A DNA stretch of 64,000 nucleotides, taken from positions 1 to 64,000 of the forward strand of contig JAIQFT010000005.1 of assembly GCA_020073185.1 (NCBI GenBank), in the 5' to 3' direction. This DNA comes from Terriglobia bacterium (GTDB lineage: Bacteria > Acidobacteriota > Terriglobia > Terriglobales > Acidobacteriaceae). Below, one piece after another: positions 16,421 through 20,086 of the stretch; positions within the stretch are counted from its first letter, which is position 1; every line of letters begins with the position of its first letter. The notes beneath the pieces were generated by a model. That model ran no database searches. It was not told where the DNA came from and saw nothing but the letters and a program-made list of their open reading frames with translations. Position numbers and translations under genes: made by a program.

Positions 16421-19400
16421 CTAGCTGCCACTGCTCACTGCACCTGCTTTGTCGGCGAGGATAAATTCGGGAAGTGATTTGACGATCTGGACGGTTTCGA
16501 GCGAGACGGTGATGACCTGGCCGATAAGGCGGAGGATGTATTCGCGGTCGTCGGGGCGGTTGGGGTCGTTGGTGATGCCGGAGCGCTTGTCGGTGGAGAC
16601 CTGGTACTGGTCAATGATCCATTCCAGGGCGGAGCGGTTGCCGAGGCGGTAGTCGTAGGTTTCGAGAGGAATGCCTTTGAGGGTGAGGGCGTCGTTGTAG
16701 AAGAGGGTGGATTTGTCTTTGTTCGAGAGGCGCATTTTGGTGACGCGGTAGTCGAGCTTGGCGGTGGGTTTCCAGAGTTTTTCCAGTGGGTATTCGGGTT
16801 GTTGTTCGTAGTGGACGTGGATGTCGGCGAGGCGTTGGCCGGCGGCGACGAACGAGCGAAAAACATTAACCACAGAGGGCACAGAGGCCGAAGAGGACGT
16901 TCCCTCAGCGGCTGAAGCCGGAGGAGTGGGAGCGGTCTTTTCGGCACGACTAAAGTCGTGCCCCTTCAAAGAAGCATCTGCGGGTGCGGCGGCGGCGGCG
17001 AGGAAGGGGATGCGGGGGAGTTCGCGCTTGAGGTTGGCGGCGTAGCGGGAGCGGTACTCGGGGTGGTGGAGGACGGCGTAAATGTAGTGGAAGATGTCCC
17101 ACTTGGAGATGGAGGGGTCGTGGTAGTGGGAGCGGAACTGTTCGAGGGCCCAGTCGGTGATGTTCTCGCGGCGGTTGGGGCCGTCTTCGGAGTAGGTGTA
17201 GAAGGGGAAGCACTGGAAACCATCTGTGCTGCAACCGAAATGCAGTTCGGGGATCCTAGAAGTCGCGAACGTTGTGAAGGGAGCCCTGAAGCCTATGACG
17301 CTGGCGACTATGGCAACATTTTCAGTTTCCGATTGCGGGGTTGGGAATATCGTTGGAATCCGGTACTGCTCTTCATTCCAGAAATCGTCGAAATACAGGA
17401 AACAGCTGGTAAATGGCCTGTAGAGCGCGTTCCGGAAACACTCCCGTCGTATCGCGGTTTGTTTCAGGTTCCCCAAAGCGGCCTTCGTCTGGCGCGTCCA
17501 CTTGATGCGCTTGTCATTCGTGTCAACCAACGCTTCGACTGGTCGCTGCGGGTCCAGTGTCTTGATGGCTACAGCCTCTTCGTAAGCCTGCAACATCCCG
17601 CTTACAGCAGAAGCTAATTGTTCGAATTGGAAGTTGAACGCATAAACATCTCTGTTTGTCGCAACCCCCAGCGAATACAGTGAAAAAACTGAGTCGAGAG
17701 AGCCGCCGTGCTTCGCTGTTTTGCCAGCGAATGGAATGAGAGCCTTGAATTCATCCACACCTTTGTTGATCCAGTTGTGGTGCTCATCAGGCGCTACAGG
17801 TTGCAGCGCGATACGAGTGAAGCTCCGTTGTGCGATGAGGAGATCGCGCTTCTGTTCCGAGGTCCAAAAGTCGTCAACGGAATACACCTGTATTGTTGCA
17901 GGCCTAGTGTGGGGCGATTTTCTGACGAGAACGGTGATGCCGACGCCGACACGGATTTGATCATCGAAAATGTTTCCGGCTTCAGCTTTTCGCCGGGTAC
18001 CCGAGGTGTGAGCATTGCCCTTCAGATTCAAATGGTAGACCGCGTCGAAATCAGTTTCGAGGCACGCTCGCATCCCATCAAACGCCACGTTGTCAAGAAA
18101 GCTGTTGTTGGAGACAAAGCAGACAACGCCTTCTTCGCGAACCCTGTCGCTTGCCCACCGAAAAGCTTTCACGTATGGGTCGAGCAATTTATTTCGGAGT
18201 GTAGCTAGCGAACGCGCGGTGTACGTATCTGCAACCCGGGCGTCAAGTGTCGGGTAGGACCGGTTCTTATTCTCGTCGTTCTCGTTCACTTGGCCCATGT
18301 TATACGGCGGATTGCCGATGATCACGAAGATCGGCGCTTGCTTCTGGCGTTTGACGCGCTCGGTGTTCTCCTCGGTCATGAACTCCAGGCCGCCCTGTTC
18401 GGGTTCGGCCAGTTCGAACGTGTCCACCAGGCAGATGCCATCAAAAGGCTTGTACTCGCCGGTTTGGGCGAGGTACTCGTGCTCGATATTCATGCTGGCG
18501 ATGTAGTAAGGCAGCAGCATGACCTCGTTGCAGTGGAGTTCGTTTTCGTACTTGTAGGGGAGAGCGCCCTTGTCGGTTTCGGCGATCTGGCGCATGACGC
18601 GCGTGATGAAATTGCCGGTGCCGACGAAGGGGTCGAGGATGTGGACGTTGCGGTCGGCGAGCGAGCGGCCGAACTCCTTCTTGAGGATGTCCTCGACGGA
18701 GCGGACCATGAAGTCCACGATGGGCTGCGGAGTGTAGACGATGCCGTGGGTGTCGGCTTCCTTGGGGGAGTAGCCTTGGAAGAAGCGCTCGTAAACGGTG
18801 TTGAGGAAGGCCTGCTTTTCGGAGTAGTCGTCCTTGTCTTCGGCGGCGCGCTCGATGGCTTTATAGAAGCGGTCGAGGTCGGAGAGGAACTGGTCGCGCG
18901 AGAATTGGCGAGAGGTCATGGAGGTGATGACCTTCTCGATCTCGGCGGCGATGACGTTGCGGCTGCGGAATTCCTCGGCGTGGAAGACGCGGCGGAAGAT
19001 GCGCTCGGTGAGCAGGTGCTGGATGAGCATCTTCTCGACCGCATCCCGAGTAAGGTTGGGATTGATGGCCTGACGGCAGAGGGCGTAGAAGGCCTCGAAG
19101 CTGTCGCGGAAAGCGCGGTTGGATTTGTGCTCGGCGTCAATGAGCTGCTTGGCGCGCTCGGCGAGTTCGGGAATGCGGAGCTTGAACTCGGCGACGGCAG
19201 CGTCCCATTCCTCGTGGTCGGGCTCGCGGTACTCGAAAAAGTTCCTTAGCAGTTCGACAAGGTTCTTGGCATCGCGTATGTCTTCGTTGAGCCCTATCGG
19301 TACACCCTTCTGGTAGAGGATGGCGCGCTCGGGCATTTGGAAGATGGTGTTGGTGGTTGGATATCCCTGCTCGATCTTCTTGCGGATCTCGCGTTCGAGT

Positions 19401-19672
19401 TGGTCGTGGATGTCCTTGGCTTCCCAGAAGCCGTGGCGCTGTTTCCATTCGTCGAGGAGGGCGCCGTCAATGGCGATCCGGCCCTGGCGGCCCTTCATCG
19501 GGTACTCGTCAACGAGCGTCCAATGCAATTTCTTGCCGTAGCCGGCTAGCACGTCATGGAAGGCGGTGCGCACGGCGCCTTCGTGGTCGAAATGGAGCTG
19601 ACCGAGGCCGCCGAGAACGTCGTAATAGCCCTTGATGAGCTTATCGGCGGGCTTGATGGCAATGTGGAGCAA
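16421..19672 (-). CDS. Single-chain restriction-modification enzyme, type IIG/ISP-like N6-adenine methyltransferase with nuclease motif
   Basis: 1083 residues. The N-terminal 130 residues contain a PD-(D/E)xK-like pattern (Glu31, Asp69 in RIAIDGALL, Glu84 and Lys86 in GFWEAKD), so a nuclease is likely. A helical coupler follows, then the methyltransferase core with motif I DPFVGTGNF (347-355) and the catalytic NPPY (454-457) typical of gamma-class N6-adenine enzymes, then a target-recognition region. No helicase domain is present, unlike true type ISP enzymes. The start is a TTG with GAAGGA upstream; the sequence just before it looks like a dispersed repeat, so the original start may have been replaced. 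About 42 residues (893-937) are repeat-derived and absent from what I recall of the family. No other restriction gene is adjacent. Confidence 0.8.
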   Translation of the reverse strand: MLHIAIKPADKLIKGYYDVLGGLGQLHFDHEGAVRTAFHDVLAGYGKKLHWTLVDEYPMKGRQGRIAIDGALLDEWKQRHGFWEAKDIHDQLEREIRKKIEQGYPTTNTIFQMPERAILYQKGVPIGLNEDIRDAKNLVELLRNFFEYREPDHEEWDAAVAEFKLRIPELAERAKQLIDAEHKSNRAFRDSFEAFYALCRQAINPNLTRDAVEKMLIQHLLTERIFRRVFHAEEFRSRNVIAAEIEKVITSMTSRQFSRDQFLSDLDRFYKAIERAAEDKDDYSEKQAFLNTVYERFFQGYSPKEADTHGIVYTPQPIVDFMVRSVEDILKKEFGRSLADRNVHILDPFVGTGNFITRVMRQIAETDKGALPYKYENELHCNEVMLLPYYIASMNIEHEYLAQTGEYKPFDGICLVDTFELAEPEQGGLEFMTEENTERVKRQKQAPIFVIIGNPPYNMGQVNENDENKNRSYPTLDARVADTYTARSLATLRNKLLDPYVKAFRWASDRVREEGVVCFVSNNSFLDNVAFDGMRACLETDFDAVYHLNLKGNAHTSGTRRKAEAGNIFDDQIRVGVGITVLVRKSPHTRPATIQVYSVDDFWTSEQKRDLLIAQRSFTRIALQPVAPDEHHNWINKGVDEFKALIPFAGKTAKHGGSLDSVFSLYSLGVATNRDVYAFNFQFEQLASAVSGMLQAYEEAVAIKTLDPQRPVEALVDTNDKRIKWTRQTKAALGNLKQTAIRRECFRNALYRPFTSCFLYFDDFWNEEQYRIPTIFPTPQSETENVAIVASVIGFRAPFTTFATSRIPELHFGCSTDGFQCFPFYTYSEDGPNRRENITDWALEQFRSHYHDPSISKWDIFHYIYAVLHHPEYRSRYAANLKRELPRIPFLAAAAAPADASLKGHDFSRAEKTAPTPPASAAEGTSSSASVPSVVNVFRSFVAAGQRLADIHVHYEQQPEYPLEKLWKPTAKLDYRVTKMRLSNKDKSTLFYNDALTLKGIPLETYDYRLGNRSALEWIIDQYQVSTDKRSGITNDPNRPDDREYILRLIGQVITVSLETVQIVKSLPEFILADKAGAVSSGS
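16866..16998 (-). repeat. Composite intergenic-type repeat inside the restriction-modification gene
   Basis: Within the reading frame lie, in plus-strand order, a CCACAGAGGGCACAGAGG stretch (16870-16887), a CAGCGGCTGAAGCC word (about 16905-16919) and the palindrome GGCACGACTAAAGTCGTGCC (16943-16962). The first word recurs in gaps at 54016 and 55785 and the second at 19951 and 20040, all non-coding. Here they are translated without a stop. Confidence 0.7.
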
Positions 19673-19847: not shown

Positions 19848-20086
19848 GATTTAGGTGCCGTCCCTACGGGACTCCGGTCGTAAGTTGGACCTGTCCCCGG
19901 GACTGACGTCCCGGGCTGTGAACTGCCGTCCCTGGCGGGACTTCACTTCTGCGGCTGAAGCCACAGGATCCCAAGCGGCCTTATTCGCCGGGCTCCCTCG
20001 CTGCGCATCGGGACAGGTTGCGCTCGGCACTTCCACCTCAGCGGCTGAAGCCCGGCACACGCGAGGGCGCGTGTGCCACAAACGCG
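19848..20086. repeat. Cluster of REP-like hairpins
   Basis: The 414 bp between the restriction-modification gene and the BON-domain gene are filled with palindromes: GTCCC-TAC-GGGAC (19860-19872), CCCGGGACTGACGTCCCGGG (19896-19915), GTCCC-TGGC-GGGAC (19928-19941) and a 10-bp-arm hairpin GGCACACGCG/CGCGTGTGCC (20054-20077). The word GCGGCTGAAGCC occurs twice (19951, 20041). No gene is visible in 19673-20086. Partial copies of the last hairpin occur at 37461 and, translated, at 48631. Confidence 0.75.

What the first reader, a model, noticed from the sequence alone, without database searches (positions are those of the whole stretch)
16866..16998. Intergenic repeats translated inside a restriction-modification enzyme
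A block of about 130 bp in the 1083-residue enzyme consists of three words typical of intergenic DNA in this window (CACAGAGG-type, GCGGCTGAAGCC and a perfect palindrome). It keeps the frame and adds about 42 residues rich in Ala, Ser, Pro and Thr. On both sides the protein looks continuous (LPRIPFL before, FRSFVAAGQRLADIHVHYEQ after). This is like the palindromic elements known to be translated in Rickettsia, and could be a route by which repeats create new protein linkers.
Basis: partly seen in the sequence, partly recalled or inferred. Interest (0 to 1): 0.75.

Follow-up and report, generated by a model that had tools for sequence, protein, structure and literature searches.

The report
Mobile repeats translated inside restriction enzyme
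A short mobile DNA repeat that normally sits between genes has landed inside a restriction enzyme gene of an acidobacterium and is read as about 45 extra amino acids in a loop; relatives in several phyla have filled that same loop with repeats of their own, so the site looks like a recurrent landing spot where selfish repeats become protein linkers.

Summary
Residues 892-937 of a DrdV-like restriction-methylation enzyme are an insertion: the solved homologue DrdV has 2 residues there and most relatives have 1-3. The third word (CACAGAGG) is a separate repeat: 65 hits against 2 in a control. R1 brackets RAYT transposase genes on both sides in three genomes, which points to the probable mobiliser. 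R1 is also read in frame elsewhere, giving the peptide GHDFSRAEK: in RNase R of this genome and in DNA gyrase A of a relative. This is the Rickettsia-RPE pattern with a different element. The site is a hotspot: a truncated second copy in the same genome carries about 150 residues of R1 and Acido-Lenti-1 repeats there, G051 carries three R1 copies, and other lineages carry their own dispersed repeats (copy number confirmed in three genomes). Insert content turns over while the flanking protein stays under purifying selection; the predicted insert is disordered. Translated REP-type repeats are known; recurrent use of one protein loop across phyla looks new. Expression and effect on the enzyme are untested.

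The parts
16421..19672 (-). DrdV-like single-chain restriction-methylation enzyme (Type IIL / ISP-like), 1083 aa; N-terminal D69...E84-A-K86 nuclease-type motif, NPPY methylase motif, coupler, C-terminal PF18135 specificity domain
   Evidence: PF18135, PF22240, PF02384; PADLOC REase_MTase_IIG; 7lo5 DrdV E=5e-208; LlaGI, LlaBIII; invariant D69, E84, K86, NPPY
16862..16999 (-). In-frame insertion, residues 892-937, between two helices of the specificity domain; predicted disordered
   Evidence: DrdV 879 to 882; family linker 1-3 aa; AF2: 895-930 pLDDT<50, no secondary structure
16900..16972 (+). R1 element: two-hairpin, RAYT-associated repeat; translated on the opposite strand as SLKGHDFSRAEKTAPTPPASAAEG
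   Evidence: 128 CM hits in the genome; covariation score 0.376 against shuffled 0.086
16909..16920 (+).
16943..16962 (+).
16871..16887 (+). CACAGAGGGCACAGAGG, one arm of a second repeat family; a related CGTCCTCTGCGTCC word is at the same place in G002 and L041
   Evidence: (65 vs 2 control)
16973..16999 (-). Low-complexity GCC-rich stretch coding the alanine-rich head of the insert
19896..19942 (+). Acido-Lenti-1 (RF01687) element in the repeat array upstream of the gene

Best explanation
The block is an in-frame insertion of host mobile repeats into a tolerant loop of a DrdV-like restriction-modification enzyme. The main piece is R1, a roughly 73-bp two-hairpin element that is probably mobilised in trans by REP-associated tyrosine transposases (RAYTs). 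R1 lies next to one arm of a second, CACAGAGG-type repeat and a GCC-rich stretch. Because the inserted stretch keeps the frame and R1 has an open frame in this orientation, it is translated as a disordered 46-residue linker between two helices of the specificity domain. The loop is a recurrent landing site: repeats have been gained, exchanged and lost there in many lineages, and only frame-keeping copies survive because the flanking protein is under selection. SHOWN: insertion, repeat identity, intergenic preference, RAYT bracketing, recurrence, purifying selection on the flanks. INFERRED: transposition as the entry route, actual translation, near-neutral effect on the enzyme.
For: DrdV and most homologues lack these residues. 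R1 has at least 128 copies, covarying stems and intergenic preference. R1 copies bracket RAYT genes in inverted orientation at C40 and C6 here (NF047646 above cut-off), at G001 C186, and around a homologous gene in G006; chance of both-side bracketing at 2 of 11 Y1 genes is about 1.6e-8 under uniform placement. R1 is in frame in RNase R, a C87 membrane protein, HyuB, and gyrase A of G006. Same site: the C3 paralogue holds two R1 and three Acido-Lenti-1 copies, G051 three R1 copies. Different repeats sit there in L042/L044 (28 and 15 genomic matches) and L085 (106 matches, both strands of a palindrome counted). Flank dN/dS is 0.18-0.25 against G002. The insert is disordered in the model.
Against: R1 lacks the canonical GT[AG]G foot of RAYT-cleaved REPs, so mobilisation by RAYT rests on gene proximity. 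No target-site duplication was found and no strain pair with an exact empty site was seen. No proteomic or activity data exist. The C3 insert looks like a whole chunk of intergenic array, which recombination would also explain. The structure model is moderate (mean pLDDT 72.9, 30 sequences).
Confidence: 0.82

Rival explanations
1. The repeats entered by recombination (ectopic gene conversion or double-strand-break repair copying a chunk of an intergenic repeat array), not by transposase action; once one hairpin word sits in the loop, others are added by the same route. This changes the entry route, not the finding that repeats are translated.
For: The C3 copy holds a mixed array of R1, Acido-Lenti-1 and GGCTTCAGCC words like intergenic arrays nearby. 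Upstream flanks of the two paralogues are nearly identical (dS 0.034 over 45 codons) while downstream dS is 0.178, suggesting gene conversion. The window insert combines two different repeat families.
Against: R1 has defined ends and brackets RAYT genes; many copies elsewhere are single units.
Confidence: 0.35
2. The hotspot reflects DNA-level target preference of the mobile elements rather than protein tolerance.
For: Different lineages hit the same few codons.
Against: The repeats are of different families (R1, Acido-Lenti-1, L042 type, L085 type), so a shared DNA target is unlikely; many homologues in cyanobacteria and Poribacteria have no insert. The site is a loop between helices in the model.
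Confidence: 0.12
3. The inserted linker is useful: lengthening this loop in the specificity domain tunes DNA recognition or a partner interface, and repeats are the raw material.
For: The loop lies in PF18135; all eight members of one starred clade keep an insert although its content changes.
Against: No conserved residue or length among inserts (11-153 aa); empty forms are common and intact.
Confidence: 0.15
4. The gene is a decaying pseudogene and the open frame over the repeats is chance.
For: The C3 copy is a 3' fragment; R1 is often stop-containing (30% of frames open against 50% random).
Against: The window gene is full length with its motifs; flank dN/dS is 0.18-0.25 against G002; independent in-frame cases exist, including gyrase A.
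Confidence: 0.06

Closest known systems
Rickettsia palindromic elements (RPE) in protein-coding genes (Ogata 2000; discussed in PMC3733652, PMC2759123)
   Same: Palindromic mobile repeats read in frame inside unrelated proteins and tolerated there
   Different: Acidobacteriota; two-hairpin layout; associated with RAYT genes; recurrent use of one site in one protein family by several kinds of repeat. Sequence homology not tested
Intragenic REPs (GTAG and CGTC families; PMC3733652) and REPs inside tnpA_REP genes (PMC6006769)
   Same: High-copy, mainly intergenic hairpins, RAYT association, some inside ORFs without breaking the frame; REPs of two Xanthomonas recB genes lie at about the same site
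   Different: No GTAG/GTGG foot in R1; the hotspot spans several phyla and several repeat families; the word 'restriction' does not occur in the main text of PMC3733652 (its supplements were not readable)
TIRYT/TIR and class 3 TnpA_Y1 atypical hairpins of Acidobacteria (PMC3733652, PMC6006769)
   Same: Y1 transposase genes of Acidobacteria bracketed by copies of a high-copy repeat
   Different: Correspondence of R1 to any listed TIR or to the CnGA-foot hairpins could not be tested (figures and supplements not held)
Enterobacterial ERIC/RU elements carrying ORFs (PMC2759123)
   Same: Small mobile repeats found intragenically and proposed as a source of new peptides
   Different: Other elements (103-168 bp), enterobacterial hosts; no shared hotspot described there
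Acido-Lenti-1 RNA (RF01687)
   Same: Three copies are read in frame in the C3 paralogue; many intergenic copies
   Different: Filed in Rfam as an sRNA gene; here it lies beside IS200/IS605-type transposase genes, so it behaves as a DNA repeat

Membership tests
RAYT-associated REP element (R1) | High-copy short hairpin repeat, mainly intergenic | tested here: met
   128 hits; 2 of 33 genic in an 82% coding sample; covariation
RAYT-associated REP element (R1) | Association with a RAYT gene | tested here: met
   Both-side bracketing at C40, C6, G001 C186 and around the G006 gene; NF047646 above cut-off for the C40 and C6 genes
RAYT-associated REP element (R1) | GT[AG]G tetranucleotide at the 5' foot of the hairpin | tested here: not met
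   Alignment A2 shows no conserved GTAG or GTGG at either hairpin foot; so it is REP-like, not a canonical REP
RAYT-associated REP element (R1) | Cleavage or mobilisation by the RAYT | not testable with these tools
   needs biochemistry
Rickettsia palindromic element | Same element in frame in unrelated protein genes, same peptide | tested here: met
   GHDFSRAEK in the RM enzyme and RNase R, GHDFSRAEKTAP in the RM enzyme and gyrase A
Rickettsia palindromic element | Sequence homology to RPE families | not tested
   RPE sequences were not fetched; only a functional analogy is claimed
Type ISP restriction-modification enzyme | Coupler, N6 methylase and ISP C-terminal specificity domain | tested here: met
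   PF22240, PF02384, PF18135
Type ISP restriction-modification enzyme | SF2 helicase/translocase domain as in LlaGI and LlaBIII | tested here: not met
   No helicase family in Pfam; LlaGI/LlaBIII align only from residue 190; the near full-length match is DrdV, so it is called DrdV-like Type IIL

The most novel reading that the evidence does not exclude
One loop in the specificity domain of DrdV-like restriction enzymes is a cross-phylum hotspot where each genome's own mobile repeats are repeatedly domesticated as translated linkers, with fast turnover that may diversify DNA recognition or regulation of a defence enzyme.
Probability: 0.25. Interest if true: 0.8.

Novelty: new variant of a known kind. 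Interest (0 to 1): 0.62.

Why it matters
Translated mobile repeats have been known since the Rickettsia work, but whether they make useful protein parts has been hard to test because most insertions looked like one-offs. Here one protein loop carries natural variants from 1 to about 150 residues, made from different repeats, in enzymes with an easy read-out (cleavage, methylation, phage restriction) and a solved homologue. That makes 'junk repeat becomes protein linker' directly testable. The survey also ties an Rfam 'RNA' family (Acido-Lenti-1) to IS200/IS605 transposase genes and finds the same repeat peptide inside gyrase A.

Tried and rejected
Acido-Lenti-1 as the window insert itself: rejected, no Rfam match at 16900-16972 even at E<=1. 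Frame bias as proof of selection: weakened, since the common frame of the four sense-oriented genic copies is mostly the one left open by stop codons. Acido-Lenti-1 copies 'inside' PheS (L175) and an aminopeptidase-like ORF (L191): rejected as over-extended gene starts. G027 insert as a repeat: looks like the widespread GAATGACA palindrome but no second copy was found in 75 kb. A literature search for the peptide string HDFSRAE found nothing. Searches failed on size limits.

Full report
WHAT IS THERE. The window lies on contig C5 of a 4.66-Mb genome. Repeat families, nearest relatives and Rfam hits point to Acidobacteriota, probably Terriglobia; this placement is inferred. The ORF 16421-19672 (-) encodes 1083 aa with ISP coupler, N6 methylase and Type ISP C-terminal specificity domains and a near full-length match to the solved enzyme DrdV (7lo5, E=5e-208; LlaGI and LlaBIII only from residue 190) (fold match). 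DrdV aligns to residue 891 and again from 938, with two residues between, so residues 892-937 are extra. Among 90 homologues the usual linker is 1 to 3 residues.

THE INSERT IS MADE OF REPEATS. Eighteen copies align as CCCTCAG-CGGCTNAAGCCG, about 22 nt, CGGCACGACTNAAGTCGTGCC-CCTTCAAAG, with strong compensatory change in the stems (98% of cells paired, covariation 0.376 against 0.086 shuffled, 0 of 500). A covariance model, R1, finds 128 copies in the genome (lower bound); the window copy scores best at 82.1 bits, though it was among the model's 18 source sequences. In 451 kb sampled around known copies, 2 of 33 R1 copies fall in predicted genes although 82% is coding (the sample is not random and the gene calls are from a simple codon-usage script). 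The CACAGAGG word is a separate family, 65 matches against 2 for a reversed control, often in facing pairs.

WHO MOVES IT. The genome has 11 Y1 transposase genes (12 hits, two being pieces of one gene). Two, at C40 and C6, match NCBI's REP-associated tyrosine transposase model and each lies between R1 copies in inverted orientation. A relative in G001 (C186) has the same layout and a homologous gene in G006 sits among five R1 copies. Chance of the double bracketing is about 1.6e-8 under uniform placement. R1 lacks the GTAG/GTGG foot of canonical REPs, so the mobiliser is inferred from association.

THE SAME ELEMENT IN OTHER PROTEINS. In this genome R1 is read in frame in RNase R (VSGHDFSRAEKRHDKDAASAAEH), in a C87 membrane protein with no Pfam family (LKGRGFSRAEQ) and, in the other orientation, in a hydantoinase B. 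In G006 it is read inside DNA gyrase A (GGHDFSRAEKTAPEEGASAPEG). The shared frame is largely dictated by stop codons in the other frames. This matches the Rickettsia pattern in kind; sequence homology was not tested.

THE SITE IS A HOTSPOT. A 3' fragment of the gene on C3 has at the same place about 150 residues of repeats: two R1 and three tandem Acido-Lenti-1 elements with 69-bp (23-codon) spacing. The same spacing occurs in an array on G001 C186, so the period need not be an adaptation to the frame. G002 and L041 carry CGTCCTCTGCGTCC words there; G051 carries three R1 copies in about 123 residues. L042 and L044 carry a repeat with 28 and 15 matches in their genomes, L085 a palindrome with 106 matches counting both strands. 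L108, L058, L103, L211 and L209 have inserts with repeat-like words not verified genome-wide. In the full-length alignment this is the most often expanded internal site. A tree of the flanks needs at least 8 changes of insert state, 3 forced by well-supported branches. Some source contigs are MAGs and may be mis-binned.

TURNOVER AND CONSTRAINT. The window gene and the C3 copy are about 90% identical over the flanks yet their inserts share only repeat families; downstream dS is 0.178, upstream 0.034, suggesting gene conversion. The flanking protein evolves under purifying selection (dN/dS 0.18-0.25 against G002). AlphaFold2 places residues 895-930 as an unstructured segment between helices 871-878 and 934-953 (moderate model).

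INTERPRETATION. Best reading: mobile repeats land in a tolerant loop, survive only if the frame stays open, and are replaced over time. Whether the linker does anything is open. Recombination with intergenic arrays is a serious alternative entry route.

COMPARISON. RPEs, intragenic REPs (including REPs inside tnpA_REP genes and at about one site in two Xanthomonas recB genes) and ERIC-type fusions are prior art (PMC3733652, PMC6006769, PMC2759123). What appears new is the repeated use of one loop of one enzyme family by several kinds of repeat in several phyla, plus the R1 family and its peptide (no literature hit for HDFSRAE in the open-access library).

Noticed in passing
G000 C86:4597-5185, C8:79728-80718, C60:12349-12978, C12:76745-77240, C96:2390-3030, C23:56151-56416: Acido-Lenti-1 (RF01687, filed as an sRNA) lies within 300 bp of 6 of 11 Y1 transposase genes (binomial about 3e-8); the C86 and C60 genes match the IS200/IS605 transposase model. 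It looks like a transposase-associated DNA repeat rather than an sRNA gene.
   Followed up: partly
L025:1036-3003 (-) in G006: DNA gyrase subunit A with an in-frame R1 insertion in its C-terminal beta-propeller region, peptide GHDFSRAEKTAP.
   Followed up: partly
L004:521-2498 (-), G000 C10: RNase R with an in-frame R1 and further extra residues between the RNB and S1 domains.
   Followed up: partly
L282:929-2563 (+), G000 C7:49851-49968: A 545-aa ORF (weak PMT_2 match) contains a complete facing pair of CACAGAGG arms in frame, a second type of translated repeat.
   Followed up: no
G000 C6 and C40 RAYT genes (L205, L201): The flanking R1 copies overlap the transposase ORFs, so their C-termini are partly repeat-encoded.
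   Followed up: no
window 19850-20082: Intergenic repeat array upstream of the restriction gene: one Acido-Lenti-1 and two weak R1 matches.
   Followed up: no
window 17120-17122 (residue 851 of the protein): Second most frequent insertion site in the enzyme family (5 of 54 full-length sequences, up to 153 aa in L114).
   Followed up: no
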